From positions 16,906-80,905 of the forward strand of contig JBBHKE010000284.1 of the NCBI GenBank assembly GCA_037447655.1: DNA of 64,000 bases, in the 5' to 3' direction. Source of the DNA: Zygnema cylindricum (Eukaryota; Streptophyta; Zygnematophyceae; Zygnematales; Zygnemataceae). The notes under the pieces were generated by a model that worked only from the letters and a program-made list of their open reading frames with translations, was not told the origin of the DNA and made no database searches. This document shows, in pieces, positions 8,484 through 64,000 of this stretch (position 1 is the stretch's first letter; each line of letters starts with the position of its first letter). A program made the position numbers and the translations under genes.

Positions 8484-8489
8484 CAGATC

Positions 8490-15740: not shown

Positions 15741-16736
15741 CAAATGCAACCATAACTCTCTGGTTCCTACCAGATATCTCATGACTCTCTTGGCTGCCTC
15801 CCAATCCCTCTTCCTAGGATCATTCATACTTCTATTGAGTACTCCAACTGCTGCCGCTATGTCCGGCCTGGTACAATTCATAAAATAGATTAAACTTCCT
15901 ACGACCTGTCTATAAGGGATAATTTTCATAAACTCTCTCTCTTTTGTACTCATTTGATCATCTAACATCATCACTCCTCCTTCTACACTCCCATCACTTA
16001 CTTCTTTCAAGTCCATGGGAGTGGTACAACTATTAGCATTTTCCATCTGGAATTTCTCAAACATATTACCTATTGCTTCTTTCTGAGTAAGTCTGATAAT
16101 CTTCTTCCCCCTATCTCTCTCCATTTGAATCCCCAAAATATATTTTGCCTCCCCTAAATCCTTCATATCAAATCTGCTTCTAAGATCTGTTTTTAACTTA
16201 TTGATCTTTTCCAAGGATTTACTCAACACAAGCAGATCATCTACATAAATTGCAATAAAAATGACACCATTCTCATCTTCAAACATATAGATAGAATGGT
16301 CAGAGTTGATACAGATATATCCCAGACTGGTAAGAAACTCATCTAGTTTCTTATTCCACTATCGGGGAGCCTGCTTTAGTCGATATAAGGACTTTATGAG
16401 CCTGCAGACTTTGCTCTCTTCTCCTTCTTCCACGAACCCCTCGGGTTGTCTCATGAAAATTTCTTCCTCTAACTCACCATTGAGGAAAGCAGTCTTAATG
16501 TCCATCTGATGTATTTCTATGTCTTCCGCTGCTGCCAGACTGAGGAGAATCCTTACTGATGGGAACCGAACAACTGGAGCAAAGGTCTCCTCGTAGTCAA
16601 TCCCCTCCTTTTGGGTGAACCCTTTCGCTACCAATCGAGCCTTATATCTCTCAATGGAATTATCTGGGTTCAATTTTAGTTTAAATACCCATTTACACCC
16701 AATAGGTTTTCTGTCTGGAGGACAATCTGCTAGTTC
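15741..16736 (-). pseudogene. copia-B reverse transcriptase
   Basis: The minus-strand frame follows on from the integrase after the TAG at 16737-16739. Motifs: [70 protein letters not shown], a TAG stop at 16359-16361, then WNKKLDEFL and the catalytic FIAIYVDDLLVLSKS, KYILGIQMERDRG and YFMNCTRPDIAAAVGVL. The catalytic YVDD is intact. Only the two TAG codons and the downstream frameshift prevent a continuous product. Confidence 0.93.
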
Positions 16737-16739
16737 CTA

Positions 16740-17882
16740 AGTATTTGCTTCCATGATAGAAGCCATCTCATCATTTATAACTCTAATCCATCTTTCATTT
16801 TCAGGACTATTCATAGCCTCCAAGTACGACTGAGGCTCATCAGGGTGAGATAGCTTAGTTACCTTATGAGCGGCTTGTTTTTCCTGTAATCTTTTGCTGC
16901 TCCTCCTTCCTCCCTCAAACTCCGAAGCAGGGATAGATGGAAGTCTTGGATTTCTTCTCACTGTCTCATCGGCTCCCCTGTCCATGGAAACCGGTTCTTG
17001 TCCTGCCTCTTCTATCTCCTCGAAGTCCATAGGAGTATGCGAGGTTTCCGTTGAGTCTCCTGTATCTTGGATCTCGCCTGAATCTGTAATCATGGTTTCA
17101 CCCATGTCCCTTTCGGGAACGATCGAGTTCTCCACACTTTCGGACTCAAATCTGATCCTTATCTTCTTTATATATTTGAAGGGGTCAAATGATTTCCCTT
17201 CATCCATGACAACTAAGTGTTTGACCAAAATGATATCTTTCTTTGCTAAGTCATAGACTCTATATCCCTTAACATCCTCATCATATCCCACAAAGTATCC
17301 AGGTTTTCCCTTAGCATTTAGTTTCCAGTTTTTCCTATCCGTGTCAAGACTGTAAACTTGGCTATCAAATACTTTAAGGTGTGAAATATCTGGTTTCCTT
17401 CCAACCCATCTCTCATAAGGTGTGACTCCCTTTACAGCTGAGGTAAGGACTCTATTCTTAATATAGTTGGCACAGTTCATTGCCTCTGCCCAAAATCTCT
17501 TTCCTATTTTCTTGTCTGCCAACATACTGCATGCACTATCTCCTTGTGTTCTATTCAACCTCTCAGCTACCCCATTTTGTTCCGGGTTATATGGTACAGT
17601 TTTCTCGTGTTGCACTCCCTCATCTCTCAGATATTCCTCAAACTGGTTAGAGGTATATTCCCCCCCATTATCACTCCTTATCCTCTTAATAGGGGTTTCA
17701 TGCAACTTCTCACTCCATGCTTTATATTCTTTGAAGTAAGTTGATGCTTCAGACTTATTTTTCAGAAAGTAGACTCTAGAGTATCTAGACCAATCATCAG
17801 TTATTGTCATCATAAACCTCTTTCCTCCAACCGAAGGTACATTTGCAGGTCCCCAAATATCTGTGTGGACCAAATCTAACAC
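16740..17882 (-). pseudogene. copia-B integrase core and C-terminus
   Basis: 381 codons open between two TAG stops. It reads LDLVHTDIWGP, TITDDWSRYSRVYFLKNKSE (first Asp), IRSDNGGEYTSNQF (second Asp) and VPYNPEQNGVAERLNRTQGD (Glu), then the copia C-terminal KPDISHLKVFDSQVY and GYFVGYDEDVKGYRVYD. An acidic, low-complexity linker (about residues 240-330) leads to the reverse transcriptase. The zinc-binding part of integrase (WHKQLGHVHSDRL, CSGCAQGK) lies upstream of the TAG, in the gag-protease open frame. The methionine at 17882 is internal to the polyprotein. Confidence 0.93.
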
Positions 17883-17885
17883 TTT

Positions 17886-19595
17886 CTAACCTCTATATGT
17901 GGCGGCTTTGGGAAAGGGAAGTCTGTGAGCCTTACCTTGAGCACAACCACTACAATCATCCATCATTTCATTATCCCCAAACTGAATGCCATCTACTTCC
18001 CCAAGCTTTTTCATTTCCCTCAACCTATCAGAATGCACATGCCCCAACTGCTTATGCCAAATCATCACCTTAGGAACACCAACATAGTAAGCATTCTTCT
18101 TTTCATTACTCAAGTTAAGCCTAAACATTCCTTGGCTACCCTTATCTGCTGTGAAGTAAACTTCATTCCCATACTTAGCTGTAAAGATTCCCTTTCTGGT
18201 GAAGGTATCAAACTCTTTGTCATCTAACACAAACGTAGAGACAATATTTTTACTCAGCTGAGGAATGTAAAGTACATTTGAGAATGTCAGTATAGAGGTC
18301 TTACCCTCCACTAAGAATTTCAGATCTACTGATCCCACTAGATCTGTAGTAACCACTCTCCCATCCCCATACTCTTTCTCTACAGTAGGAATCTTTCGTA
18401 GCTTAGTGAAGAGTTCTTTATCACGACACATATGCATGGATGCACCTGAGTCGATTATCCATCCTTCCTGTGGAGCTTCCCGAATTGCTCCAAGGGCACA
18501 CTTCTGCCTCCGAGGGATCTCCTTCTCCTCCAGACTCTCGTCAAGAAGAAGCTCCCCATCCTCCTCAGATGACTCATCCTCGGTTTCTCCTGACACTTTT
18601 GTAACCACAAGTGCCTTTTTCTTCCCTCCGAAAGAACCCCCTCCACGGTTTTCTTGGAGCCTCAGCTCTGACAACTTGACACAATCTGCAATAAAGTGTC
18701 CCGACTTTTTGCAATAATGACAAAGACCCTTTGGGGGCCTCTGTCCCCCATAATTATCTCTTTCCCCTCTATAAGGTTTCTTCGGATCCTTCCCCCATCG
18801 GTCCCCTCCTGCTGTTAGAGCTTGAATGCTCTTTCCTCCTCTCCTAATATCCATTGTGTTTTCCTGCACAAGTATCATCTTGACTACTGTGTTCCATTTC
18901 CATGAACTATCAGGCATTCCCTGTACTCGGTACACTATGTTTTCGAACTCATCTGGTAATTTCATGATAAGGTTGTTAACTTTCATTTTCATTGTACCTG
19001 TCCACCCGGTGCTTTCCATTTCCATATACAAACAAGAAAGATCATTACAGTAATCTAACATATTTCCTCCTTTGTAAGTGTAACTCAATAGCTTTTGCTC
19101 AGCCAACTGGAGCTCCTGAATAGTTCTAGCTCTATAAATCTCCACCAAACTCTCCCACAATTCCTCGGCCTTGTAAATATGAAGATGAGGAGTGGCCAAA
19201 CCTTGAGTGAGGTGCCTCAAAATGAAGTTCTTGGCATCCATGTTTACATCCTCCCACATTTGAGTATCGTTCTCCACGGTCTTCACGATCGCCGTTCCCG
19301 ATACTCTGGCAATAGGAGTGAGGGGTGTCTCCTTCCCTTTCTCCTTTTCGGACACACTGCTGTCCCCATCATCTGCCTCCTCCGCTGAGGCAGCCGTTGT
19401 TGCAGAAAACCTTACTCCCCCAAATCTTGGTGGAGTTCCCGAAGGTGGATGTTTCACTTGTCCACTGACGATACCCCAGTATCGTTTTTCACACAAAGCT
19501 CCCATCATCATGGCTTCCCAATAGATGAACCCAGATCCATTGAAGGTGGGCACCCTAGAGGGTGGGCCCATAACCTGCAATTCTGTGTCCTCCAT
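17886..19595 (-). CDS. copia-B Gag-protease polyprotein (open, 569 codons)
   Basis: The longest intact frame in the window. It starts at an ATG inside the 5' LTR (19593-19595; MEDTELQ) and reads through the primer-binding site (QVMGPPSRVP). Residues about 1-250 are copia Gag, including the conserved LAEQKLLSYTYKGGNMLDYC and MKLPDEFENIVYRVQ. A CCHC zinc knuckle, CHYCKKSGHFIADC, lies near residue 290. An acidic linker follows (ETEDESSEEDGE). The protease active site is GWIIDSGASMHMCRDKEL near residue 380. The frame ends with the integrase zinc region (WHKQLGHVHSDRLREM, CSGCAQGKAHRLPF). The TAG at 17886-17888 separates it in frame from the integrase core. It could still encode a particle protein and protease, but the element cannot make Pol without read-through. 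Confidence 0.9.
   Translation of the reverse strand: MEDTELQVMGPPSRVPTFNGSGFIYWEAMMMGALCEKRYWGIVSGQVKHPPSGTPPRFGGVRFSATTAASAEEADDGDSSVSEKEKGKETPLTPIARVSGTAIVKTVENDTQMWEDVNMDAKNFILRHLTQGLATPHLHIYKAEELWESLVEIYRARTIQELQLAEQKLLSYTYKGGNMLDYCNDLSCLYMEMESTGWTGTMKMKVNNLIMKLPDEFENIVYRVQGMPDSSWKWNTVVKMILVQENTMDIRRGGKSIQALTAGGDRWGKDPKKPYRGERDNYGGQRPPKGLCHYCKKSGHFIADCVKLSELRLQENRGGGSFGGKKKALVVTKVSGETEDESSEEDGELLLDESLEEKEIPRRQKCALGAIREAPQEGWIIDSGASMHMCRDKELFTKLRKIPTVEKEYGDGRVVTTDLVGSVDLKFLVEGKTSILTFSNVLYIPQLSKNIVSTFVLDDKEFDTFTRKGIFTAKYGNEVYFTADKGSQGMFRLNLSNEKKNAYYVGVPKVMIWHKQLGHVHSDRLREMKKLGEVDGIQFGDNEMMDDCSGCAQGKAHRLPFPKAATYRG
19561..19575 (-). promoter_or_regulatory. copia-B primer-binding site (half-tRNA iMet type)
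   Basis: Minus strand GGTTATGGGCCCACC, directly after the 5' LTR. From memory it is a perfect 15-base complement to the anticodon arm of plant initiator-Met tRNA. The usual 3'-end priming would need TGGTATCAGAGC, which is absent. The site is translated as part of Gag. Confidence 0.8.
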
Positions 19596-48350: not shown

Positions 48351-49082
48351 CTTTGACAGACTATAACATTTAGAAAAACGTCCCAATGGTTCTGAAATAT
48401 ACCACAGTGAAGATAACATACAAAAGAACACACACAGAAAATTTCAATGAATTCTGCTCACAGATTTGTGAGATATGCAGAAATGAAATTACATAAAAAT
48501 AAGTGCACAATTTTCATATCATTTGTTCCTAATGAATCAAATTCACTAAGTCCTACTTCTATACACCGAAACTACACTAAGCTGTACGGAGGCATTCTAA
48601 CCATATACATAACATTCTAACACAACAAATACTATAAGTATACCTATGTACTGAAGGTATGTCATTAACCACATTCTCAACACTAAACAACTAATTTACT
48701 ACATACAAATTTCTATTCTACCAAATATTTACACCGAAGTTCTGACAACGTAAAGTGATAGTGATCTAGTCACGCCTCGTCAGTATTTGTTAGCGATTGT
48801 TGTCAGCCATCCGATTAGAGGATTTGGCACCGTAGAACTGACTTCACGAAGTCGCGTGGTCCTGCCAAATTTCTGTACGTCCACGAAGGTCATACTCACG
48901 TATTTCTCTCAAGTATCGATGTGTGTCCCAAGTGTGAATGAACCGTGAACTCCCAACTTCACCGTCAAACTAATTTTGGTAACCACTGAAACGAACTCAA
49001 CCAAAAATAGCTTAAGTCCTGAATAGCTCTCTCTCCCTCACAGCTGAGCCATAGAGAGGACTAAACCTTTCTAAACACAACA
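48351..49082 (-). repeat. copia-C 3' LTR
   Basis: Non-satellite sequence between the array and the polypurine tract (minus strand GCTTTAGGGGAG at about 49083-49094). On the minus strand it begins TGTTGTGTTTAGAAAGG. The other boundary is uncertain (near 48354) because no second LTR is present. It contains TTGTTAGCGATTGTTG at about 48787, which shares the satellite core GTTAGCGAT. Confidence 0.7.
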
Positions 49083-49105
49083 CTCCCCTAAAGCTTTAGA
49101 CTCTG

Positions 49106-49500
49106 CTAGTCACTCAGTCCACATGCCTCTCTACAGAACTTCAATTTGGGAGCAGGTAAGGGTTTTGTCATCATATCAGGCACCACTTGCTCATCCGATA
49201 AATAACTCAATTTTAAGACTTTTCCCATCACGTTTTCTCTTACAAAATGTAGCTTGATATCAATGTGCTTAGCGTTAAAATGATGACTGGGATAAGAAGC
49301 AATAGCAATTGCTGCCTGATTGTCACACCACACTATTTGTGGTCCAAATTGCATAAAGAGAAGCTCTTGGGGAAGAGACTTTACTCAAAGTAACTCCTTA
49401 ACTGCCGAGCTGGCAACCATGTACTAAGCCTCCATAGTAGACTGAGCTTTTACCTTCTGAAAATTTGCTGCTCCAGCAGCAAGTTCCACTTTCGATCTTC
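49106..49500 (-). pseudogene. copia-C RNase H domain
   Basis: Minus strand: VWCDNQAAIAIASYP, FNAKHIDIKLHFVRENV, VPDMMTKPLPAPKLKFCREACGLSD and a stop. The upstream half (about 49360-49500; SSAVKELL-like and STMEA-like traces) is broken by stops and a frameshift. Confidence 0.85.
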
Positions 49501-49508
49501 AAATCTCC

Positions 49509-50833
49509 TTAGCTAGCATCGCTCCAAATATGAATGTTGACTTCCCCTCCACTGAGAGAGAGTCTAAGATTTCGAGTTCCTGCAAGATAACGAAGAACTC
49601 TCTTTGTTGCCCCATAGTCCGACTTCCTTGGATTTTGCATGCTTCGGCTCAAGGCTCCAACCGCTGCTGCGATGTCGGGATGAGTACAATTCATGAAATA
49701 AATGAGGCTTCCGACAATCTGCTTGTAAAGAATGTGAGACATAGAATCTGCCTCCCCTGAATCTAAGAAATCATCAACCAAAACACCACCATGCGTTTCC
49801 GTGCCTTCCAATTTCTGCCTTGATTCCATAGGAGTGGCACTCCCCTTTGCTTCTGACATGCCAAACTTTTCTAACATGTTCTTCATTGCTTCCTTTTGAG
49901 TTAAATAAATAATTTTATGTTTCCTGTCTCTTTTTACTTGAATTCCTAGAATATACTTAGCCTCACCCAAGTCTTTCATTTCAAACAAGGAATTCAAAGC
50001 TGATTTTATTTATTAATCTCATTGATGGATTTGATAATTAGTAGCAAATCATTTAGATAAACTGCCACATAAATCACTCTATCATCACCTTGCATTACAT
50101 AGACTAAGTGATTTAAACTGACCTTGGTAAAGCTAAGATTGGTTAAAAACTCATCTAATTTCATGTTCTATTGTCTCGGAGCCTGTTTCAAACCATACAG
50201 GGACTTCAACAGTTTACAGACCAGATTTTCTTTCCCTTTTTCTGCATACATCTCTGGTTGCTTCATATAAATTACTTCCTCTAAATCACCATGCAAGAAA
50301 GCCGTCTTAATATCCATCTGATGTAATTTCATATCCTCTATTGCAGCAAGAGATAGCAAATCTCTAACAGTAGGAAAGCAAACCACAAGAGAGAAGGTCT
50401 CTTCATAATCAATTCTATCCTTTTGGCTAAATCCCTTAGCAACGAGTCTAGCTTTATATCTCTCAATTGTTTTATCAGGATTCAATTTTAATTTGAAGAC
50501 CCACTTACAACCGACAGCTTTCCGGTTCGGTGGGAGCTCCACAAGTTCCCAAGTTTGGGCTTCCATAATTGACTTTATCTCTTCATTTGCAGCCGGGATC
50601 CAATGATCCTTTTGAGGAAAGGAAAAAGCTTCATGAATAGTAAGCGACTCCCTTGTGCTTGCACAAAAAGCACTCTCAACTCGGTCGCCTCGAAGGCGAC
50701 TGCTTTGCATTCTTCCCCCTGGAAAATCTGACGCGGGAACTGTTGGTTCCCTAGCTTGCCGCACAAGGCGTGTATTGGGAGGAGCATCGACAAACGTGTA
50801 ATGCCGTATCACGTCGCCTGCATTTAATCCCAT
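49509..50833 (-). pseudogene. copia-C reverse transcriptase
   Basis: Minus strand: [58 protein letters not shown] and [10 protein letters not shown], with a TAG at 50168-50170. After the TAG come traces of NMKLDEFL, the catalytic box as YVAVYLNDLLL (YVDD changed to YLND), and the lower segment FEMKDLGEAKYILGIQVKRD and NCTHPDIAAAVGALSR (49509-49997). Unlike copia-A and copia-B, this copy keeps the Trp of TWELV. The N-terminal [20 protein letters not shown] is the usual linker between integrase and reverse transcriptase. Confidence 0.88.
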
Positions 50834-50872: not shown

Positions 50873-51882
50873 GGAAACGGTCCTTTAACCCCGAGATCAC
50901 ACTAACTTGTATTTTAGTATGGTTGGGTGCTGATAGATCCGTACAAGTGTTTGTCAGGCGCTGTGAAACCTGCGAACAGATTCGAGTTCGTAACATGTAC
51001 TTTAGTCCGTACAAATGTATTTGTCCGGCGCCGGAATTTCCGCGAACCAATTTAAGTTGCTGTCTGGATGATTGGCGAACCGAAACGTCATCTCGGAAAG
51101 ATGTCAGTACCAGCGCGAATTCGAACGCGCATCTACGGCCACAAATGGTGTAGACGAACGAACGATCTAGATTCGGACTGCACGCAGGTCCATTTTAAGT
51201 CGTGGACCCTTGGAGGTCGCACGCATTCACATGTAGCATAGGGAGGGTTTGTATCCATAGGTTGTAGATTTTGTAACGTAAGGCATACGATTCTGGTCGC
51301 CTATTGGCTAGAATTCAAACTAGGCGCAGACAACTATATAGAACGTATGTATTTGCACTAGGTTAGACTCTCAGCTGAAGGTTTCAGACTTAGTCAATTT
51401 TAGACGAATTCTGTGCTGACAATTTCGAGAGCACAGGAATTCTTTTTGGGAGATTCAACCTAAACTTTTATTATTTTCTTGTGAAATTGCCAGGAAAGTT
51501 TTTAGTGGCTATTTTTCTTGCCATTTAAGCGTTTTGCTGCATAGCTCTTACTCCTTTCTCTGTAAATCTGCCTTGCAATTTAATCTACACGGCTCACGCA
51601 GAAGCCTAACCGGTTTCCCTTCACTACTTCCCTCTTCCTATCAAGTGGATTGCTGCTCAACCTTCTATCTCAGGCTGTTGCTGAACCCTGGATTGTGATT
51701 GGACAATTTTGGGTTTGCTTGTGTGGTCGCTTGGTGATAGGGGATTAGGGTTGACTCTCTTTATTTGTTTTGTTTGTGGTTAAATCTGGTTATTTCAGAT
51801 TTGCCCGTGGTTTTCTACACTTTCACTTTATGTGTTTTGATATTTAAGTTAGATCTTTATTTAATCAAACTCCTGTAAGGAA

Positions 51883-51888
51883 TATAAA
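51883..51888 (+). promoter_or_regulatory. TATA box of gypsy 5' LTR
   Basis: AATATAAACCGACC lies in a conserved block, with GAGCCTAGTGGC about 10 bp downstream. The matching block in the 3' LTR reads AATATAAATAGACC (61810-61817). Conservation in otherwise diverged LTRs supports a promoter role; transcription would start about 30 bp downstream. Confidence 0.6.
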
Positions 51889-51942
51889 CCGACCAAGGAG
51901 CCTAGTGGCTATCCTTTGGCATATTATTCATATGCTCTCGAA

Positions 51943-52190
51943 ATTGTCGGTTTTTTCTATTTTCTGCATTTTCAAATTGTCAGTTTTTCCCTATTTTCTG
52001 CAATTTGAAATTGTCAATTTTTTTTATTTTCTGCATTTTCAAATTATCAGTTTTTCTATTTTCTGCAATTTTAAATTTGTCTGTTTTTTTCTATTTTCTG
52101 CATTTTCAAATTGTCTGTTTTTTTCTATTTTTTGCAATTTGAGACTTTCAATTTTGCTCCATTTTTTGCAATTTGAAATTGTCAGTTTTT
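51943..52190 (+). repeat. minisatellite in the transcribed part of the gypsy 5' LTR
   Basis: About seven imperfect copies of a 32-36 bp T-rich unit containing TTTTCTGCATTTTCAAATTG. The 3' LTR has only one or two related units near 61860-61930, so the array expanded in this copy after, or independently of, integration. Confidence 0.8.
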
Positions 52191-52620
52191 CGAAGTTCCT
52201 TTATTCCTTGTGTCAATTGGTTGTTCTGTCTAGTTTTTGTCAATTTGTCTGCATGTTTAAATTTCTGCTATGCTTTATTTTCATTTCATTTGTTGTCTAG
52301 TTTGTTTTTGAGTTGTTGACTCTGAGATTGTTGAACTCTCCAGTATCGTTTTCTCTTCTTTTTTCCTACCGGATTAACTCAGTCAAAACACCTAGCAAAC
52401 TTAAACAAATAAAAACTTAAAAAAAAAAATCTCAATATATATAAATATATTAGGTTGCACAAATTATCACATAAAATTACCATTGCTTTATAGTCGGGCA
52501 AAGCGTGGCATAGTGTTGATACGCGTGCCCTAAAAGGCTACTAACTAAGTTGGTAATTGAGCTATGGTGTCTGCTCGACAATTTGGAAGTAGAGCCGGTG
52601 GAGCTGATCCGTTTTTTGGG

Positions 52621-53193: not shown

Positions 53194-54702
53194 ATGCCCA
53201 CTGATTGGGATAATCTTGACTACTCATCCAGATCCACACGTAGCGGTGGAACTTTTCGTTCGCCAAATTCCGATCAACAATATTTGTTGAATTCTGTCCC
53301 TTTTCCATTAAGTCCCACAAGCGTATCTAGAGCGTCATCCACTCGTTCAGATTTGACCACCGTGTCATCTTTATCATCCATTTCATCCACCCTATCTGTG
53401 GAAGAGGTTGATAACGAAGAGGGACCCGTTTTGGATTCCCTTTCTTTTTGGTCTCCGTTAGTACCTAGTCAGGTATTGACTTCAACTCACGCATTTCCTT
53501 CGATGGCCTCTACATTGGAGGGCTTTCCAGGTAAACTTCATTTCTGTTTTTCCGGAATGAAGGACACCAGGAGATTATCACATTTTCGAATGCTATTTCA
53601 TACTGAAATGCGAGATCTCGCTTTCCGTTATCAAGACTCATTTGACCTTCGTGTCGCTTTCTCACTCCTCCGACTTTACCTTGGCGGTTCCGCCCTTACC
53701 TTGTATTCACGCAAGTATGATGGCATACTTGGAGTGACTTAATTTTCTCCACCATTTACCGGTACGCCTGAGGTTATAGGTCAAGCAGAAATTCCTTATC
53801 AAGCTGCTATTCCCGAGGTCTTACATGCACAAGGCAATGTTCTTTATGCCGCTCTCGCGGAGGTTCCCCATCAATATGCTGTTGCAGCACAAGTTTTTGT
53901 CCCGGCACGACCTGGGATGACCATTGCGTTACGAGACCCTCTTACTGTAATGTTTGATCTGTTACAAGAGGAGTATCGCATGCAGAACCCGAACCAAGTA
54001 AAGGAATTAATAAATTGTGAGCGTAAAAAAGGCGAAACTGCCCCCGCTTTACAAGCCCGCATGGAAACCTTGCGCGAAGCTTTACCCGATCTAATGTCAG
54101 ATGCCAAAGCTGTCCAAAAGTTTGTAGGACAATTTCCTTTTCAGTCTAAGAAATTCATTCAAAGCCACCTTACCCAAACATACGGTCTCAAATTCACGTT
54201 TGATCAAACAGCCCAGTACGCGGTTGAATACGAGATGACAAATTGTTGGTGGGAAGCTCACGATCGACCGAAAGCACCTCAAAAGGGACCTACTCCTTTT
54301 AACCCACAAAATCCTCGTAATCCAGGGCCAAATAATCGCCCACCGAGGGTTCCAGCTATGGGAACTCCACCCAATCAACCATCAAATCGCATTTGCTTTC
54401 GATGTGGCAAAACTGGACATGATGCCCGGATGTGTCCGGATAAATCTACAACCTGTACCCACTGCAAACAAACCGGCCATTTCGTATATTGTTGTCACAT
54501 CAAAAATCTTGAATTTTCATATCAAAATCAGATTCGAAATGGCGGAATTCCAGCTAGATATGCCAAGATAGTCCAACCAGCGAAAGAGCTAGAAAAAGAT
54601 TCTCCACCCAAAGTGTCTCAGAGAGAAAGAGAGAGAGAGGAAATGCAAACTCAAATGGCCGCCATGATCAAAGACCAGTTTGCACCCCTTATGTTCAAAT
54701 GA
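53194..54702 (+). pseudogene. gypsy gag with one in-frame stop
   Basis: 502 codons in a single frame from MPTDWDNLDYSS to PLMFK, interrupted only by TAA at 53740-53742. The first 80 residues are Ser/Thr-rich. Residues about 90-330 look like a retrotransposon Gag capsid region (SHFRMLFHTEMRDL, MTIALRDPLTVMFDLLQEEYR, QTYGLKFTFDQTAQYAVEYE). Two CCHC zinc knuckles follow a Pro/Asn-rich linker: CFRCGKTGHDARMC and CTHCKQTGHFVYCC (about 54390-54495). It would package element RNA into particles. The stop codon TGA overlaps the ATG of the protease frame (ATGA at 54699-54702). Confidence 0.88.
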
Positions 54703-55547
54703 AACCACCCACTCATCTAACCGGCATGGCCCGCACCGTTGTACACACGCCCACGTTGGCAGGTCGTATCTTACGAGATTCCACCGTCCAACAACGAGAG
54801 GTTATTTCGAACAATCAAAAATTGCGGGCAATAAAATCTAACACGATTCCGTTGTCATTCGCTAAAGAACCTTCTTCTCCCTTGCCTGAAACCTCTTCAG
54901 CCATCGGGGCTGAAGCTCTCAACATAGTGGACCGAACCATACATGAGGCACATCGCGTAAAAGAACGCTTGTGCATTCTATCAACCATGATTTCTGACAC
55001 TCCAAACTTCTCTTTTACCCCTGATAGCTCTGCTGCAGCTGCAGCTGCCGCTTTAGAAGCACTACAGCTGCACATAAATCTTGCGGCTGTTCGGCGTATT
55101 TCCGTAGAGGAGCGAGGTACCCTCGATCCTCATATCAGTTTTTTGGATAACGGGAAGGGTTCATTGTTCATCAATGGTATAGCCCCTTCCCTTCCTCTCA
55201 TGGATACGGGTGCAAAGCCGGTGATATTGGTCTCTAGGTTTGCACTCAAGCTTAGTCTAACCCCGGACAAGCTTGAGTCCACCTCTACTCGCTTGCTAAC
55301 CTCAGCGGGCACAACCGAGCCAGTCTTAGGAATCACTAAGGAACCTCTCGTTTTCCGGTTCCAAAACGGAATGGCCACGGAATGTGCTGAAATCTCGGTT
55401 CACTCTTTGGTCAGTAAATGTAGTGACTATGAATGTTTAGTGGGACACGACGTTATATTTCGTGTAGGGGGTGGAGCTGACATGCATGATCAGACATTTT
55501 CTTATAGGCCCACTAACTTCCAGAACGCAAAATTTGTCTTCCAATAA
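54699..55547 (+). CDS. gypsy aspartic protease
   Basis: 282 codons, intact. The first 100 residues are unrecognised. An Ala-rich run (SSAAAAAAALEAL) lies near residue 110. The active site is PLMDTGAKPVILVS near residue 165, followed by a beta-rich half ending YECLVGHDVIFRVGGG (near 245-260), which resembles the LLG-x-D strand of retropepsins. It matures the polyprotein. The start overlaps the gag stop by four bases, which would suit termination-reinitiation or a -1 shift. The frame ends 17 bp before the methyltransferase, which is in yet another frame. Confidence 0.85.
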   Translation: MKPPTHLTGMARTVVHTPTLAGRILRDSTVQQREVISNNQKLRAIKSNTIPLSFAKEPSSPLPETSSAIGAEALNIVDRTIHEAHRVKERLCILSTMISDTPNFSFTPDSSAAAAAAALEALQLHINLAAVRRISVEERGTLDPHISFLDNGKGSLFINGIAPSLPLMDTGAKPVILVSRFALKLSLTPDKLESTSTRLLTSAGTTEPVLGITKEPLVFRFQNGMATECAEISVHSLVSKCSDYECLVGHDVIFRVGGGADMHDQTFSYRPTNFQNAKFVFQ

Positions 55548-55564
55548 TTTCCGCTAGGAAACCC

Positions 55565-56878
55565 ATGCCTGTGATGGCACATTCGCCCACTTTCGTACTT
55601 GCATTTTCAGGGAATTCGGTGGGGGCCGAAATATTTCATTCATTGTCGGCGGAAGAAATTTTACCCGATAGTTTTTCCTTGCCAGAAATTTTCAGTGATC
55701 CCAGATTTCTTATAGATACGAGGGAATTTGACCGCATCTTTAACCAAACCTTGTCGATTCCACTTTCTTCGGTCCCTTTCCCAATTTCCATCCCTACATA
55801 TTCTTCCGGATTTCTTCCCATCAGTTGGAAACTGGTCAAATTGAGTCCTCATCGTGATGTATTGGTGATTTTGGACCTCTTCACTAAAATCGGCACTTCC
55901 CTCCTTTCTTGTCTGCGGAACGGATTATTAATCCGATTTTATTATTCTGTCGAGATTGATCCTTTAGCACGAAAAGCACAACTATATCATTGTAATCTGT
56001 TGCATTCCAAATACCCGGAATTGTTACCAACATCCGCATACGAACATATGCATACTACCCTCCCAGAAGACATCCGGATTGTGGGGAACCATCATTTACT
56101 AGAGATTGGGCCGGTCGATCTAGTTTTCGGCGGATGGGAATGCCAGGGAATGTCTCAAGCTGGGAAAGGTCGCGGATTAGCGGATCCCCGTACCAAATTA
56201 TTTTTTGAATTGGTTCGCATCCTCAATTTTCTGCAAACTTTAGAGCATCCTATGACGTATATCTTGGAAAATGTCACAGCTTACAACGATCCAAGACCTA
56301 CGGTCCTGGCTGATTATCAACGGATCGAACAATTAATTGGTCCGCCCCTTATTATTGACGCCGCTCGCCATGGTTCACTGGCACACTGGGTTCGCTCAAA
56401 ATAAACGAACCTGATTGATATTGGTCGACTCCATGAGGCTATCCTTTCAGTTTGTCCTCCTCCTACAAACATTCAGGCTGCCCTTCTTCCTTTCCATGAG
56501 GTGCAGCCTTGTATTCAAAAGGAGTGTCCCCCTAATTTCAATATCAATGTCCAGGGTCAACCTCTCAAGGTTCTTCCTACTTTAGTTTCTTACCCACATT
56601 CACATGCATTTTCTAATGACAGTCCTGGCATGCTCCAAAACATTTGTACCGGTGAGCTCGAAGAGCCTACCTCCATGGAGCGAGAACACCTCATGCATTT
56701 CATCCCTGGCACTACAGCGGCTCTTGGCCTTACCGCACGTCAAAGATGCACTTTATTAGGTCGTGTCATGGACCCTCAGTCTTTGTCCTTTGTTTTAGGT
56801 CTCGGGTTCGCAGCTGGTCGCCACTCTCAGGCACATCCGTCTCAACCAGCTGGGGGGAGGGCAGGCATCACAAAGTAA
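55565..56878 (+). pseudogene. retrotransposon-encoded C5 DNA-cytosine methyltransferase
   Basis: 437 codons in one frame, broken by a single TAA (56402-56404). It transfers a methyl group from S-adenosylmethionine to cytosine C5. Motif I is VILDLFTKIGTSLLS (residues 101-115), with Lys where the first Gly is usual. Motif II is YYSVEID (Glu130). Motif IV is FGGWECQGMSQAGKG (188-202), keeping catalytic Cys193 but with Glu for the usual Pro before it. Then GLADPRTKLFFE and motif VI YILENVTAYND (Glu235). A motif VIII-like SLAHWVRSK precedes the stop, which falls where related proteins have Trp before TNL. The C-terminal part has EREHLMHFIPGTTAALGL and RCTLLGRVMD, matching motifs IX-X. It lies between protease and reverse transcriptase. 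The product of the first 279 codons lacks the C-terminal motifs. Domain identity is firm; activity in this copy is unlikely. Confidence 0.9.
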
Positions 56879-58178
56879 ATCTTTTCGTCCCACTCTCAAA
56901 GGGACCACATTTCAATTTTTCCTCTTTCCTTCTCCAATTCCACCAGTCCCAAAAATCTCTATCTATGATTTCCTCAACCTTAGCCACATGTCCTGGTCTA
57001 TTCCCGCATACACGGCTGTCCAATCTGCAAGCTCCACACATAATCCACATACTTCGCATTGGACCGCGGCTTTTCCCACACGCAGTTGGAGTCATTGGGT
57101 GAATTGCCTTAAACAGGCACCTGTGGCTTACGAGTTAGGTCAAACGCTCATCGCAGATGAACAGTTGGCCTTCCCAAAAGCTATGGAGGCCATGACGACT
57201 GAGAATCCCGAGGCTCCTAAATGGAAATTCGGAACCAATCTTACAAAGGCCGAACAAGAATTATTGAATGACGTAGTCTTACGTAATATCGATGCCTTTG
57301 CTTTTTCAATGAACGATTTGGGTCATCACACCACGTATAAGATGTCGATAGATCTCGAAGATGACCGCCCTATATTTAAACCAAAACATCGTCTGTCAGA
57401 AACCGAATGGGAAATGGTAGACAAGCGATGTGCTGAGCTAGAGGAAGCTGGCCTAATCTATCGGTCAGACTCCACATTTGCAGCTCCCACCGTCATGCCT
57501 CGGAAAAAGGATTCCGAGGGTAATTTTACTGAACGTCGAATGTGCGGTGATTATCGTGAACTAAATGTTAGGACCGTTTAAGATCGTCATCCCATGCCCT
57601 TCGCCGAGGAAATATTTGACCACGTAGGCGGGGCGAAGTATTTTAGTATCATTGACCTCCGTCAAGGATTCAATCAAATTGAGATAGAAGAAAAAGACCG
57701 ACATAAATCTGCCTTTTGGGGTAGTAACGGCCGATGGGAATGGGTCGTAATGCCATTCGGACTTAAAAACGCTCCAGCGGTATTTCAAAAAGTCATGGAC
57801 TCAGTTCTCGAAGGTTGTAAGTTTGCTAGATGTTACATCGATAACCTCATCATTGCCTCCGCTACTATCGAAGAGCACGCAACTCACATCGAATGGGTAT
57901 TGACTGAATTAATAAAGGTTGGATTAAAGTGTCATCCCGCAAAATGCACCTTTGGATCCGAGGGAGTGCCTTTCCTTGGCCATTTTATCTTGGCTGAGGG
58001 GATCACTCCTCTCGAAGCAAAGGTAGAGGCAATCAGTAAATTGCCGGCTCCAACAGACCTCACAAGTCTGCGAGCCTTTCTTGGACTTGCTAATTATTAT
58101 CGTAGGTTCGTATCTAATTTCAGTACCATCGCATCTCCGTTAAACGACCTCCTCAAGAAGGAAGTTGCCTTCATATAG
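56862..58178 (+). pseudogene. gypsy reverse transcriptase
   Basis: Frame open from a G-rich run (about 56850-56862), so the methyltransferase and reverse transcriptase were probably one polyprotein joined before a frameshift there. The N-terminal 150 residues form a connector. The polymerase follows: PIFKPKHRLSETEWEMVDKR, STFAAPTVMPRKKD, RMCGDYRELNVRTV, a TAA at 57579-57581, KYFSIIDLRQGFNQIEI (first catalytic Asp), VVMPFGLKNAPAVFQKVMD, CYIDNLIIAS at about 57831-57857, and VPFLGHFI plus LRAFLGLANYYRRFV. The catalytic box YIDD is YIDN here (GAC to AAC at 57843-57845), which abolishes polymerase activity. It ends at TAG 58176. Confidence 0.92.
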
Positions 58179-58897
58179 GGTCCCGATCAGATTTCCGCAT
58201 TTCAAAAAAAAAAAATCGCTATATCGAGTGCTCTGATTCTCCGTTCCCCCAATCAAAAACTCCCTTTTTGTCTCCAAACTAATTTTGGAAAACTCGGGCC
58301 ATTTTGACATAAAGAGAGCTGAGCGGAGAGGAATATGTAGTTGTTTACGCGAGTAGAAGCAATAATTGTGCTGAATCGAATCATAGTAGTTACGAAAGGG
58401 AATGTCTAGCTGCGGTTTGGGGAGTCGTTCACTTCCGCCATTATTTGTACGGAAAGCCTTTCACACTTCTAACTGACCATCAACCCTTACATTGGCTGAT
58501 GACTAACAATAAGCTTTCAAGGAAGCTAGCGTGATGGGCTTTAATTTTGCAAGAATATGACGTTGAAATAATCCACCGACGCGGTCTGCTTAGTCTAAAA
58601 GCGGACGAAATTTCCCGAAATCCTTTGCCCCGAACGACGGATAACGGAGTTCGACAGGATTTCGATGATGACGATGTTCTCGTCATGTCAATGGGTTATT
58701 ATCTTGCTTACTGTCTGGCCTCTATTCCGAACCCTCGTCCCGCCACAGATCTTTGGCGTGATGGGCCTCTCATTCTTTTCCTATCCTCTCAGACCTTCAG
58801 GTCCGGCACCACCTCTGACAAAGAAGATAGAGTGAAAAAGAGAGACAAAAATTACCTTTGGCTCGGGGGGTATCTAGTTCGGTTGTTGGCAGATTGA
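58179..58897 (+). pseudogene. gypsy RNase H
   Basis: A frameshift separates it from the reverse transcriptase; the left part (58180-58370) is badly degraded, with stops and an A-run. From 58379 the frame reads YERECLAAVWGVVHFRHYLY and FTLLTDHQPLHWLM, a TGA at about 58531 (K-L-A-stop-W, where Arg is normal), then ILQEYDVEIIHRRG and LKADEISRNPLPR. These are standard gypsy RNase H motifs. The conserved Glu (in YERE) and Asp (in TDHQ) are present. Confidence 0.88.
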
Positions 58898-60030
58898 AGC
58901 CATAGGCACGTCCCTCGTCCTACCGAGATGCTTTCTCTTATTGAGCAGATTCACACCGAGCTTGGTCACTACTGTACTTAGCGGACGTTAAGCCTACTTC
59001 AGGCACGGTATTGGTGGTCAAGAATGCAAGCCGATGTTGCTGCTATTCTACACAAGTGTGCCACCTACGACCGTCTCCGAACTTCTTTCTCTAATTGACA
59101 GACTACTCTCCAACCTCTACCCATTAGAAGTTTATTTTATCGATGGTTGGTCAATTTTGCCGGACCTTTTCCCATCTCACGTAGAAAAAACAATACATCA
59201 TTGATTATATCAGTAAGTGGGTAGAAGTCATAACTCTACCTCACAAAACATCAAAGTTAACCACCGCAAACTTCAAGGAACATGTCCTTATGAGATACGA
59301 TGTCCCAGCCGAGGTCCTTACGGATCAAGGTACAAATTTCGGGGAGAATTTCAAGAGATGTTTGATGAGGCCCTCATTGATCACCGTCATACTAATCGCG
59401 ATCACCCTCAAGACGATGGCTTGAATGAACTGGCAGTCCAGACATTTAAGCGTGCCTTGCGTAAGCATTGCTTAGAGAAACACATTTTGGTTTGGGACGA
59501 GTCCCTTGGCTAAATAACCATGGGATATCGCATGTCAGTTCAAGCTAGTCTGGCTAACTTTAGCCCGTATTATATTTTATTTGGGCGACAACCGTTGCTC
59601 GGTCGTAATATTCAGAAAGCTGCAAGCTTTCCGTTTCCACTGATGTGTGACACTATTTTTTTTTAAGAACTCACTCGTCGTGCCTTGCTTTTTGCCCATA
59701 AAATGCCCAAGGCTTTTTATAATCTGCAGATTGCTCAACATCAGGACACACTCCGGTTTGCCACCACTCAAAACGGCAGTTACAAGCCCCAACAGAAGCC
59801 CTATCTGGTGGGAGACTATGTTTATCTTTGCATGCAATCTTTTGACACCTAGGACACGGATGTTTTTGCACACATCCTACGGATTATTGAGTAGGATCCA
59901 AACGGAATGTTGGGATTACAAGGAGCCGACATGCGGATGTTCTAAGAGCACTCCAAGAATTGTGCCCCATGTTATTTACCAGATTTGTTGCAAGATATGG
60001 ATCCTATGCGGATACCGATTACGGAGGCGA
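58898..60030 (+). pseudogene. gypsy integrase
   Basis: Zinc domain: IHTELGHYCT, a TAG, RTLSLLQARYWWSRM and KCATYDR, where the second Cys of the CxxC pair is Tyr. Core: WLVNFAGPFPIS (first catalytic Asp changed to Asn, AAT at 59153), then, after a shift in an A-run near 59185, YIISKWVEV-type sequence (as YIIDYISKWVEV) and VLTDQGTNF (second Asp, 59323). After another shift near 59335 it reads EMFDEALIDHRHTNRDHPQDDGLNELAVQTFKRALRK (Glu at 59427). The C-terminal part keeps MGYRMSVQASLANFSPYY, ALLFAHKMPKAFYNLQIAQHQ, VGDYVYL and LQGAD, the usual DNA-binding tail of these integrases. Multiple stops make it non-functional. Confidence 0.88.
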
Positions 60031-60036
60031 CAACAT

Positions 60037-60174
60037 GTACCTTCTGTCATTGATCGGACGGGGAAACTACCATGTTACTTTGTGATCATTGCAATCAGGG
60101 GTTTCACATGGAGTGTTTGGTGCCCCCATTGTTGGCGGTTTCGGATGGTCACTGGTTTTACCACGGATGATGCG
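60037..60174 (+). pseudogene. PHD finger at the integrase C-terminus
   Basis: Same frame as EHSKNCAPC...DPMRIP upstream. It reads CTFC, then GETTMLLCDHCNQGFHMEC, LVPPLLAVSDGHWF and a final Cys. This fits the C4-H-C3 PHD pattern, with CxxC, CxxC, H-xx-C and the Trp two residues before the last pair. Two CGA-type Arg codons appear as TGA stops (60052-60054 and 60169-60171), and the seventh Cys is Tyr (TAC after WF). PHD fingers bind histone H3 tails, often methylated or unmodified Lys4; here it would steer integration to chosen chromatin. A chromodomain sits in the analogous place in many other gypsy elements. Confidence 0.85.
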
Positions 60175-60219
60175 AGCTTCCGGTCGTGTTGGCCAGCTCT
60201 TCTGCCGGCTTAAGAGCTG

Positions 60220-60230
60220 GGGGGGAGAAT
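60220..60230 (+). promoter_or_regulatory. gypsy polypurine tract
   Basis: GGGGGGGAGAA directly before the 3' LTR start TAAACCGACC. The Pol frame reads through it (AGGEN). Confidence 0.85.
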
Positions 60231-62159
60231 AAACCGACCTAACCATAACCAGCTAAGTCGATGACCTTTTTTTTTCTTCCACCTTGCCTGTTGTTGTATT
60301 TTTCCATTTTCACTTTTATGTCTTATATCAGTCACAATATCTTGTTATCATTTGGGTTTAAGTGGAGCATAGCTCATGATATTGCATGCATCCTCACGTT
60401 ATCAGACACATGCACGACGGTTGTTATGGTGCATGTCGTCGGCCAATTTCCTTGTCTATATTTAGGGATTAGAAAGGGCAGCTGCCACACTAATTCGTAT
60501 TTGGGTGTTATTTGGGTTTTACAGAGACCGTACATACCCACATTTCGCTTTCGCGTCAACCGTACAATTTTTACATTGCCGTACGCGTCGTCCGTACGTA
60601 TTCATTTTTGGCCGTAACATGCGCCGACGATAAGTTGACCATACGACTCAGAATTCCCGGATTTTCTGTCGACGACGACTTCGACTGTACGACATACATT
60701 CTCCCGTGATTTCCGCCGACGGTGGATTTATTCATTTCGCGTCGTCCGTACCATATATATTCTGTGCGATTTTCGCCGACGGTGAATTCAAATTTTCACT
60801 TCGACCATACGACTTCTCTTTTCCAGAATTCCCGCGATCGTAAAGTGGACCGTACCTGGGGTCCTACTGTACCTGTGGTCCTATCGTACAAACTTTTATT
60901 CCCTTGGATCCCGGCCGACAACAAATGTTAATCATTTCGCGTGAAGTATTTTCTCGGCTGTCGACGTCGAGTATGCGATTTTTGTAACATCACATCTGGA
61001 CCGTTGACGCAAGTGATAGACAAATCGGATGTCACTTTTGACGAAGCAACGTGATTGGAACATTTTAATTCATGTTCTATTTGGAGGTTCACGCGTTCAC
61101 AAGTAGATAGGAAGGGTTTTAATCCGTAGGTTATAGATTTTGTAATGTAAGGCATAGGATTCGGCCTCCTATTGGCTAAATCCAAACTAGACGCAAATAC
61201 TTACATAGCACGCTGTACTCTTATTGGCTTGTTTTTGTTAGGCGTAGGCCTTGTTACTTAGTTGATTTTATATCATTTCCTGCACACAATTTTCAAGTGC
61301 AGGATTTATATATTTTTCAGTATTGGAGATTTTCTGCAACCATTTTTTTCCTTGTAAAATTGTCCGGACAGCTTAGAGGCGATTTTCTGCCTTAGCGTGA
61401 AGCGTCTAGTTTCTATTACATTATCAATCTCTTGTAAAGCCTTACATTTTAATCTATACGGCTTCGGCCAAGACCTACACAGTTTCCCTTCAACTCTTTT
61501 CTTCCGTTTCAGTGGATTTCGATCGAGTTCACACAACACAAACTTCTTTTCCCGAATGCGGCTGAATCTTAATTATTGTGGAGATTTCATGTTGGGAATA
61601 TTGTTGTGTTGTTTTGATTGCTTGTAACTTTGTATTTTTTTTTAGCTGGCTTGTGTGCATCTTTTGAGTTTGGTTATCTCAAACCTCATAAGTGTCGGGC
61701 ATATTGTCATTTTCAGTTTTTGTTTATCTTTCTCGGTTGTTTATGCTTTTATTTATTCTCTTTAAGGCTAAATTCAGATTTTCTCCGATAAGATAACTCA
61801 TGCAAGGAATATAAATAGACCGTGGAGCCTAGTGGCCATCCATCGGCTTAGTATTCTTGCACTTGAAAATTGTGTTCTCTTTTGCTTTCTCTATTGTTTT
61901 TTAAATTTCAATTTCAGTTTTCTTATATTATAAAAGATATATATATATAGCTTTAAATTTTTTAATTACCATTTGCTTGTTAGTTGACGTTATAATCTCA
62001 TTGGCTAATTTTCTGCCAATAATATACTACACTAACTTAAGTATTTGGTTTTTATTTCTTTCGCTCTCTTTGCTGATGTAAGGGGCACCTTTTTCTCACA
62101 TTGGGACCTAACTCGTAAAAGAGTGGAGTTAGTAGAGCGGATCCGTTCTTGAAAATTAA
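60231..62159 (+). repeat. gypsy 3' LTR
   Basis: About 1.93 kb, from TAAACCGACCTAACC to the point where the same start sequence recurs at 62160. Around 60585-60800 it has diverged sub-repeats built on GTCGTCCGTAC and TTCGCCGACGGTG. TATAAATA at 61810-61817 is the likely promoter. It matches the 5' LTR only moderately, so the two LTRs have diverged a long time or come from different copies. Open frames within it are noise. Confidence 0.85.
61810..61817 (+). promoter_or_regulatory. TATA box of gypsy 3' LTR
   Basis: TATAAATA followed by GACCGTGGAGCCTAGTGGCC, conserved with 51883 onward in the 5' LTR. Confidence 0.65.
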
Positions 62160-62348: not shown

Positions 62349-62710
62349 CCTAATGGAATTCTACCCTAAGTCGTTTTTCACATTAATATTGCCCATTTGT
62401 TTCGAACTAATGAATCATCATTTTGGTTCAAAATCAAACCGAAATGTTATCGAAATACCACTTATATATCTCGCAATGGTCATGGTGTGAATATTCATTT
62501 TTGAAATAACTCCTCTTATTCATTTATTTCGTTTCCCACTCACAAAATTCATGTTATATAAACGCATGGTTATTGTCGTTCTACAATGGATCTCTTCGGC
62601 TACTCTAATGCTAAAAATAAAAAACTTATGTTTATTTACGGAATATGTAAACAACTAGGGCGTTCTTGCAACAAGACAAATGGTACCGTACAAACAAACG
62701 CGTCAGACGC
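62349..62710 (+). other. unassigned AT-rich segment with a small open frame
   Basis: No match to the families in this window. It includes a TATA-like TATATAAACG at about 62553 and, 30 bp downstream, an ATG (62586) opening 81 codons (MDLFGYSNAKNKKLMFIYGICKQ...). The last third of that frame lies inside the neighbouring copia-B LTR, so its end is accidental. I do not recognise the first 42 residues. It could be a fragment of another element or of a host gene cut by the LTR insertion. Confidence 0.4.
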
Positions 62711-63742
62711 TGTTGAAATTATTAGATTTATATGGTATTTTCTAGGTCTAAATAATTCAGTACAAATAGGTAAAGTAAAAGGTGGACAGCCTGTCTCCAC
62801 CTCCTCTCGCTACCCACCATACTTGTTGTAGTCACTGAGGGATAGAGAGGGTGGTTTAGCCATGGCTGTCCTAGCTTAGCAGGCAGGACTAAAGAGTGAC
62901 TTATATCACTCTCAACAAAAGGTTGAGTCCGGCAAGACTCAAACCTCTGACCGGTAGAGCGCGGCGTAGCCGTTAGCTCTAATCACTTTGTCGTAGAAGT
63001 CCATTAGGATAGGTTTGATAATTATTTAAATGGTGTTTAGACCATGAATTCGATTAACACAATAACTAACAAAAGAACATAGAACCAAGTGTTATATAAT
63101 GCAAACATTATCTCACACAAAACAAATGAATCAGACATCTGTTTCGAGGCAGACATTTAATATCGGATTTAATCCGACTCCAGACATTTAATATCGGATT
63201 TAATCCGACGGCATATATCACTGCCGAAATCACGGAATGGTCACTTTGGCAGTTTTGACGCGACACGACGTGGCGCCACGTGGAGGTGTGACATTTGGTT
63301 GCAAGAATTTCGGGGAACATAATGACGAGTTTACAGTGGACACACGTCCACTCAATGGCCTTGCCGTACACAGACCGTACAGATTGTACATCGGCCGTAG
63401 TACCTTTTCTATACCCTACAGTCATTTGATTGGTACGTATGTCAGTAGATAGGATTTGTGAGAGGGGTTTAGGACTTAGACAATTTGGTAGGAAGTGACC
63501 TCTCTCCCTTTGAGAGTTTGTATAAACATGGCATCTTTGCCACCACATGATTTATCGCCTGGTTGGGCGTTTTCAGAGATTCTTTTTCCTACGCACTCAA
63601 GAGAGTCCATGTTGCATAGGGGCAAAGTCAAATAGTCAACGTGTTTTCTTGGGCAGCAATGGTTGCCATTGAAAGTGGGTAAGTTAATAACTATCTAGAG
63701 GCTTCCTGAATTTTGTAGTCCAATGGAGGACACATAATTGCA
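62711..63742 (+). repeat. copia-B 5' LTR of a second element
   Basis: Plus-strand relative of the copia-B LTRs, from TGTTGAAATTATTAG to ACATAATTGCA. It has the tRNA-like segment (62921-63000, reversed) and a tandem duplication of the ATCGGATTTAATCCGAC palindrome (63163-63209). It is clearly more diverged than the pair at 14234-20576. The open frames on either strand (63108-63548, 63237-63452) are non-coding. Confidence 0.9.
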
Positions 63743-64000
63743 AGTTATGGGCCCACCCTCTAGGGTGCCCATCTTCAATGGATCTGGATTTATCTATTTG
63801 GAAGCCATGATGACAGGGGCTTTGTGTGAAAAACGATACAGTGGTATTGTTAGTGGACAAGTGAAACGTCCACCCTAGGGAACACCACCGAGATTTGGTG
63901 GAATAAGGTTTTCTGTAGCAACATCTGCCGCAGCAGAGGAGGCAGCTGATGGGGACATCAATGTGTCAGAAAAGGTGTAAGAAAAGGAGATACCTCATAC
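63723..64000 (+). pseudogene. copia-B gag, broken and cut by the window end
   Basis: Starts in the LTR at ATG 63723 (MEDT), then a TAA where copia-B has Glu. It continues QVMGPPSRVPIFNGSGFIY and MMTGALCEKRYSGIVSG, a TAG after VKRPP, then GTPPRFGGIRFSVATS and a TAA after VSEKV. It is clearly homologous to the start of the frame at 17886-19595. The rest of the element lies outside the window. Confidence 0.88.
63743..63757 (+). promoter_or_regulatory. primer-binding site of the second copia-B element
   Basis: AGTTATGGGCCCACC directly after the LTR, as in the other copia elements. Confidence 0.75.

What the first reader, a model, noticed from the sequence alone, without database searches (positions are those of the whole stretch)
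55565..56878. A Ty3/gypsy element that encodes its own cytosine-5 DNA methyltransferase
Between the protease (DTGA) and reverse transcriptase there is a clear C5 methyltransferase: DLF..IGTS motif I, GWECQG motif IV with the catalytic Cys, ENV motif VI, and C-terminal motifs. An element that can methylate DNA could control its own silencing, mark its copies, or support symmetric-CpG maintenance. Related retrotransposon methyltransferases are known, as I recall, from a charophyte alga and dinoflagellates; the copy here may extend that to another host or a new subfamily. The position within Pol suggests it is made as part of the polyprotein and released by the protease.
Basis: partly seen in the sequence, partly recalled or inferred. 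Interest (0 to 1): 0.9.

Follow-up and report, generated by a model that had tools for sequence, protein, structure and literature searches.

The report
Retrotransposon family carrying DNA methyltransferase and PHD-finger
The window holds one dead copy of a jumping-gene family, present in many copies in its unnamed eukaryotic host, whose protein carries both an enzyme related to those that put methyl marks on DNA and a domain of a kind that reads histone tails; a similar family is known from one green alga, so this is a new branch of a rare kind and not the first case.

Summary
Confirmed: 55517-56875 encodes a C5-methyltransferase domain (PF00145, 47.5 bits, cut-off 22) between protease and reverse transcriptase of a degraded Ty3/gypsy element. 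This copy is dead: a stop inside the domain, motif I damaged, other stops in gag and pol. The family is not: in the host assembly (352.8 Mb, unnamed) 123 PF00145 matches were scored of 782 candidates, all over cut-off, and four examined copies keep methyltransferase and reverse transcriptase in one open frame. The domain resembles DNMT3 best among solved structures (1e-16) and is under purifying selection (omega 0.05-0.08). Two lineages exist, with GWPCQG and (the window's) GWECQG. Four copies checked have A-coding-B-A-B repeats, TGTC...GACA ends and 4-bp duplications. A gypsy element with DNMT3 in Pol and this repeat layout is published (KnitGypsy-Dnmt3, Klebsormidium nitens), so this is a new variant of a known kind. 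Enzyme activity is untested; the host was not identified.

The parts
51187..52052 (+). A-type repeat at the 5' side (A1); 62% identical to the A2 side of the same window, 63% to A1 of four other copies; 5' boundary uncertain
53194..54699 (+). gag with CCHC zinc knuckle (TAA at 53740-53742)
   Evidence: zf-CCHC 20.8-21.5 bits
54558..55544 (+). protease (LMDTGAK; DTGA at 55197)
   Evidence: Asp_protease_2 17.3 bits in the window, 20.1 in L027, 22.0 in L012, all under the cut-off of 24.3
55517..56401 (+). C5-methyltransferase, N-terminal part: motif I (damaged), motif IV GWECQG, motif VI ENV
56402..56404 (+). TAA stop inside the methyltransferase; the 18 other rows of the alignment are open at this codon
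   Evidence: 19 rows, window included
56405..56875 (+). C-terminal part of the methyltransferase (LPTLVSYPHSHAF, EREHLMHF, QRCTLLGRVMDPQSLSFVLGLG) and linker
56799..58178 (+). reverse transcriptase (stops at 57579-57581 and 58176-58178)
   Evidence: RVT_1 91.4 bits for 57594-58178
58313..58531 (+). RNase H
   Evidence: RT_RNaseH 77.2 bits
58982..59570 (+). integrase, broken into pieces in this copy
   Evidence: three pieces 65-86% identical to the integrase of L043; no Pfam match to the two window pieces tried
59946..60167 (+). PHD finger at the C-terminus of Pol (one stop inside)
   Evidence: PF00628 38.2 bits with the stop read as X; L012 40.2, L023 40.1, L043 40.5, L045 44.3 bits in open frames
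60213..60227 (+). polypurine tract (G-run) just before B1
60228..60418 (+). B1 repeat (92.7% identical to B2)
60419..61870 (+). A2 repeat, by alignment with the 3' side of other copies (with B1, 78.7% over 1698 positions in L021); a further stretch to 62157 is matched over most of its length only by L016
62158..62347 (+). B2 repeat, 3' end of the element (...CACGACA)

Best explanation
The window carries a degraded copy of a Ty3/gypsy-type retrotransposon family with Pol order protease - DNMT3-like C5-methyltransferase - reverse transcriptase - RNase H - DDE integrase - PHD finger. Most likely the methyltransferase is made inside the Pol polyprotein, travels with the reverse transcriptase and acts on the element's own new DNA before or at integration, while the PHD finger on the integrase tail reads a histone tail and so steers or times integration. 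Shown here: domain order, many copies, two lineages, open frames, purifying selection on the domain, a PHD-like finger in both lineages, 4-bp target duplications in the copies checked. Inferred: enzyme activity, action on its own cDNA, proteolytic release, histone binding.
For: PF00145 over cut-off. Profile of nine natural domains against solved structures: DNMT3A E 1e-16, DNMT3B from 1.5e-13, then HaeIII 3e-7, DNMT2 1e-6, DRM2 1e-4. Methyltransferase and RT in one open frame in L021, L032, L033, L039. At least 26 of 32 examined reverse-transcriptase places, the window included, have the methyltransferase at the expected distance. Omega 0.073-0.077 over nine sequences of both lineages, 0.046 over five of the window's lineage; between its subfamilies dN 0.10-0.16 with synonymous changes saturated. 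Same deep split in methyltransferase and RT trees, 100/100. PHD finger.
Against: No activity was or could be measured; the published KnitGypsy enzyme gave no methylation in yeast, which its authors call inconclusive (PMC5890265). In the window's lineage the proline before the catalytic cysteine is glutamate, which may harm catalysis. RT is more strictly conserved than the methyltransferase (omega 0.026 and 0.008 against 0.073-0.077 and 0.046), and close copies give pairwise ratios of only 0.12-0.35. L012, L020, L021, L023, L025 and L027 are not CpG-poor (0.91-0.97), so there is no strong footprint of long-term CG self-methylation. The PHD match in the second lineage is 21.4 bits in the one copy tested, under the cut-off of 24; by tblastn PHD was found in 13 of 21 copies, one of the misses (L015) having an integrase.
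Confidence: 0.62

Rival explanations
1. The domain in the GWECQG lineage is no longer a methyltransferase: with E in place of P before the catalytic Cys it serves as a DNA- or SAM-binding part of the polyprotein (packaging, targeting, chaperone), while only the GWPCQG lineage methylates.
For: E replaces P in 6 of 7 sequences of the window's lineage aligned (L014 has V) and in L032, L035-L038; the other lineage keeps PC in 4 of 4 aligned and in L039. CpG observed/expected is 0.62-0.67 in five GWPCQG pieces but 0.73-0.97 in 21 copies and 0.86-0.90 in five pieces of the other lineage, as if only one lineage were CG-methylated for long.
Against: Cys, motif I, ENV and the motif VIII arginine stay conserved in better copies and the domain is under purifying selection in this lineage too (omega 0.046); the CpG contrast could come from host targeting, composition or age.
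Confidence: 0.27
2. The methyltransferase mainly acts on the host: it spreads CG methylation over host DNA, as proposed for Symbiodinium.
For: High copy number (782 first-look candidates); the argument made for Symbiodinium in PMC5890265.
Against: No methylome here; private changes in the copies show raised C-to-T at CG and CHG (36 and 32 per 100 sites against 18 at CHH), a plant-like pattern and not a CG-only one.
Confidence: 0.06
3. The domain was captured from a bacterial, phage or giant-virus C5-methyltransferase and only looks DNMT3-like.
For: 334 phage records match; the 20 listed rows show 27.7-36.0% identity, best E among them 2e-12 in Vibrio phage 1.275.O; NCBIfam dcm matches with 55.8 and 44.3 bits, under its cut-off of 100.65. 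No phylogeny with full DNMT sets was possible.
Against: Among solved structures DNMT3A leads HaeIII by about 30 bits and the lowest DNMT3B chain still by 16; the C-terminal TEMER...LLGRSW stretch of DNMT3A is aligned too, though with a negative score. The published analysis of the like-built KnitGypsy domain places it with Dnmt3.
Confidence: 0.12
4. Chance insertion, host gene next to a transposon, or assembly artefact.
For: The window copy alone would not exclude it; nothing else found points to it.
Against: Expected position in at least 26 of 32 examined RT places on many contigs; methyltransferase and RT in one open frame.
Confidence: 0.01

Closest known systems
KnitGypsy-Dnmt3 of Klebsormidium nitens (de Mendoza et al. 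2018, PMC5890265; parts 1-4 of 7 read)
   Same: LTR Gypsy element; DNMT3-like domain inside the Pol ORF; repeats in the DIRS-like A-coding-B-A-B order; purifying selection on the domain (Ka/Ks < 0.2 there).
   Different: Its main text never mentions a PHD finger (0 occurrences); its figures and sequences were not held, so PHD finger, GWECQG and termini could not be compared. Its authors say K. nitens has fewer copies than Symbiodinium; here there are 782 first-look PF00145 candidates.
SymbioDIRS-Dnmt3 and SymbioLINE-Dnmt of Symbiodinium (same paper)
   Same: Retrotransposon-borne C5-methyltransferases; in the DIRS ones in one ORF with the reverse transcriptase; many copies; two SymbioDIRS-Dnmt3 enzymes methylate CG in yeast.
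   Different: LINE or tyrosine-recombinase elements; here a DDE integrase, with 4-bp target duplications.
DNMT3 de novo methyltransferases of animals and plants
   Same: Motif order not rearranged; best match among solved structures.
   Different: No PWWP or ADD match in the scans; the window's lineage has WEC in place of PC; a PHD finger sits far away at the end of Pol.
Chromoviruses (recalled) and Ginger1 transposases, one of which has a PHD finger (PMC2836005, passages read)
   Same: Extra domain C-terminal to a gypsy-type integrase; that paper gives TGTNR ends for Ginger1 and Gypsy and 4-bp target duplications for Ginger1, as in the copies here.
   Different: Here a PHD finger in a retrotransposon that also carries a methyltransferase.

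Membership tests
C5 cytosine methyltransferase (PF00145) | Significant match to the family model | tested here: met
   47.5 bits against cut-off 22 in the window; 45-52 bits in L032, L033, L034, L039
C5 cytosine methyltransferase (PF00145) | Catalytic PC dipeptide in motif IV (its near-universality is recalled) | tested here: not met
   WEC in the window's lineage (6 of 7 aligned, one WVC); Cys kept. Met in the second lineage (WPC in 4 of 4)
DNMT3 family | Closest to DNMT3 among DNMT classes | tested here: inconclusive
   DNMT3A/B/C lead among solved structures, but no tree with full DNMT sets could be made
DNMT3 family | Unrearranged motif order (unlike DRM) | tested here: met
   Motif I at 55868, IV at 56129, VI at 56264, then the C-terminal motifs
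Ty3/gypsy | Order RT-RNase H-integrase with RVT_1, RT_RNaseH, rve | tested here: met
   L012 and L023 open frames: RVT_1, RT_RNaseH, Integrase_H2C2, rve in that order
KnitGypsy-Dnmt3 | Gypsy with DNMT inside the Pol ORF | tested here: met
KnitGypsy-Dnmt3 | A-coding-B-A-B repeats | tested here: met
   Both repeat pairs in L020, L021, L025 (A pair only in part), L027, the four copies whose two sides were fetched; B-A-B order at the 3' end also in L043 and L045 (read)
KnitGypsy-Dnmt3 | Sequence relationship | not testable with these tools
   No K. nitens sequence at hand; protein database switched off
DIRS/Ngaro | Tyrosine recombinase, no target-site duplication (the latter recalled) | tested here: not met
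   rve integrase; 4-bp flanks identical in 3 of 4 copies, 3 of 4 bases in the fourth

The most novel reading that the evidence does not exclude
These elements are writer-plus-reader retrotransposons with an unusual life cycle: the DDE integrase cuts not at the ends of the reverse-transcribed repeats but at an internal junction (GACA-GC-TGTC between B and A) of a circular or permuted intermediate, giving A-coding-B-A-B copies with TGTC...GACA ends and 4-bp duplications; the DNMT3-like domain marks this intermediate and the PHD finger couples it to chromatin state.
Probability: 0.18. Interest if true: 0.85.

Novelty: new variant of a known kind. Interest (0 to 1): 0.6.

Why it matters
Transposons are normally the targets of DNA methylation; a family that has carried its own DNMT3-like domain through several subfamilies under selection makes the question 'what does a transposon gain from methylating DNA?' testable. 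Two lineages with PC and EC catalytic loops in one genome form a natural comparison. The PHD finger behind the integrase suggests chromatin-guided insertion. If the repeats reflect integration at an internal junction, a textbook step of LTR replication differs here.

Tried and rejected
Chance or single-copy insertion: rejected by the copies. Separate ORF for the methyltransferase: first suggested by L012, L023 and L027, where it ends an upstream frame; rejected because each has its own 1-nt deletion at a different column of the alignment while other copies keep one frame.

Clean methyltransferase-free variants: 6 of 14 tested RT places lack the domain in the 701-base piece looked at; four of these pieces match Copia elements of the window or stretches beside them, one an A-type repeat, one nothing. 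No clean variant was shown, and none is excluded; 8 of the 40 scored RT places were not examined.

Structure prediction of a window piece (single sequence): mean pLDDT 36, useless; not searched further. Viral contigs gave three matches at 28-29% identity, phages 334 records, all under 60%: distant only.

Host identity: not solved. Assembly size and Copia richness of the window resemble Zygnema cf. cylindricum SAG 698-1a_XF (359.8 Mb, 3,587 scaffolds, Copia 29.8%; passages of PMC11096116) against 352.8 Mb in 2,689 contigs here; that is a guess from size only. Searches with RF01960, PF00016 and PF01698 never got a usable answer.

Literature: apart from PMC5890265 and PMC12344493 (passages read: some DNMT3 members sit in retrotransposons, named there as LTR Copia and DIRS, of streptophytes and dinoflagellates), no other report of LTR elements with a methyltransferase was seen in the titles and abstract starts listed (open-licence library only; the listed papers were not otherwise read, except passages of PMC6453930). 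PHD fingers in gypsy integrases were searched (listing only).

Full report
WHAT IS THERE. The frame at 55565-56404 matches PF00145 with 47.5 bits (E 2.2e-12, cut-off 22). In the same frame the domain runs on to about 56806 behind a TAA at 56402-56404. The window lies in a 352.8 Mb unnamed assembly.

THE WINDOW COPY IS DEAD. Besides the stop, motif I is damaged and a conserved arginine is lost; the frames of gag, reverse transcriptase and integrase are broken too. B1 and B2 differ by 7.3%, against 0.5-1.0% in L020, L021 and L027, 3.2% in L025 and 21% in the part compared in L013.

THE FAMILY. A 505-base methyltransferase probe gave 40 scored matches (86-90% identity besides itself) from 219 candidates. 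PF00145 gave 123 scored matches from 782 candidates, all 123 over the cut-off; these may include host genes. Twenty copies were fetched at 9.6 kb, shorter pieces later. Methyltransferase and RT share one open frame in L021 (990 aa), L032, L033 and L039; one search reports an open frame of 2,395 aa at one PF00145 match. L012, L023 and L027 each have a private 1-nt deletion between the two domains. Converse test: of 40 scored RT places (365 candidates), 18, the window included, lie at the expected distance from a methyltransferase match (tables compared by eye); of the 22 others 14 were looked at and 8 have the domain, 6 do not (mostly other transposon sequence there), 8 were not examined.

TWO LINEAGES. 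One, with the window, has GWECQGMS; the other has GWPCQGYS and is 42% identical to L032. Both sit between protease and RT. Methyltransferase and RT trees split the same way with 100/100 support (10 and 11 rows, midpoint root), which fits one old capture. In the first lineage the PHD finger scores 40-44 bits in four open frames (L012, L023, L043, L045); the one copy of the second lineage tested, L044, scores 21.4 bits, under the cut-off of 24. By tblastn PHD was found in 13 of 21 copies, window included; seven of the eight misses have no integrase match either, the eighth (L015) has one.

KIND OF ENZYME. The profile of nine natural domains finds DNMT3A at 1e-16 and DNMT3B from 1.5e-13, HaeIII 3e-7, DNMT2 and HhaI 1e-6 and DRM2 1e-4 among solved structures; no chain named DNMT1 or CMT is among the 54 hits. 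This is a ranking, not a phylogeny. Replacement of the motif IV proline by glutamate in the window's lineage is unusual (that PC is near-universal is recalled, not looked up).

SELECTION. Codon-model omega (kappa reported as 1): methyltransferase 0.073-0.077 over nine sequences, 0.046 over five of the window's lineage; RT 0.026 over ten and 0.008 over six. Pairwise counting gives saturated synonymous change with dN 0.10-0.16 between subfamilies of the window's lineage, and ratios of 0.12-0.35 between close copies. So the domain is kept, though less strictly than RT.

FOOTPRINTS OF METHYLATION. Private changes in three regions with 13, 18 and 16 aligned copies: transitions per 100 sites 36 at CG (39 at 108 sites), 32 at CHG (20 at 63), 18 at CHH (98 at 550), 8 at A/T; transversions 11, 14, 11, 9. 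The copies thus look methylated at CG and CHG, a plant-like pattern, by whatever enzyme. CpG observed/expected is 0.73-0.97 in 21 copies of the window's lineage, 0.62-0.67 in five pieces of the second, 0.39-0.60 in three Copia-bearing stretches of the window. The contrast is suggestive only.

TERMINI. In L020, L021 and L027 A1 and A2 are 99.1-99.6% identical over about 1.4 kb and B1 and B2 99.0-99.5% over about 190 bases. In the four copies with both sides fetched (L020, L021, L025, L027) the element begins TGTCATGCC and ends CACGACA; the 4-bp flanks are identical in L021, L025 and L027 and agree at 3 of 4 bases in L020. Inside, B1 meets A2 as GACA-GC-TGTC in these four and in L043 and L045. 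B1 starts right after the G-rich tract. If B-A is what reverse transcription makes (from tract to primer site), the inserted form is a rotation of it, as if a circle had been opened at the B|A join. That is inference; no primer site was identified. In the window the A repeat at the 5' side is only 62-63% identical to the 3' side and to A1 of other copies, and about 290 further bases lie between A2 and B2, so its ends may belong to another subfamily or insertion.

AGAINST WHAT IS KNOWN. KnitGypsy-Dnmt3 of K. nitens is a gypsy element with Dnmt3 in the Pol ORF and DIRS-like repeats (PMC5890265; parts 1-4 of 7 read). The present family is like it in the features that could be tested; sequence kinship could not be tested. 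The PHD finger is not mentioned in that main text, but figures were not held, so it may be shared. The same paper found CG activity for SymbioDIRS enzymes and an inconclusive negative for KnitGypsy in yeast.

VERDICT. Additional here are the second lineage, the EC catalytic loop, the PHD finger, and gypsy-type termini with 4-bp duplications on a DIRS-like repeat layout.

Noticed in passing
1440-6273, 11857-14228, 20576-48348: Large arrays of a 40-bp satellite (about 700 copies in the largest), about 27-28% GC over most of their length, with Copia elements between the arrays; possibly centromeric (guess).
   Followed up: no
6980-11192, 14230-19595, 49078-50833, 62710-63994: Ty1/copia elements or parts of them, coding frames on the minus strand in the first three; CpG observed/expected 0.39-0.60 in the three stretches measured.
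   Followed up: partly
56847-56861: G-run between methyltransferase and RT, preceded by AGCTG like the tract before B1, and varying in length between copies: a possible central polypurine tract.
   Followed up: no
L033, L034, L039, L040, L041: Pieces of the second methyltransferase lineage (GWPCQG) are CpG-poor (0.62-0.67), unlike the window's lineage.
   Followed up: partly
51940-52191: Tandem array of a 34/67-bp T-rich unit inside the 5' repeat region of the window element.
   Followed up: no
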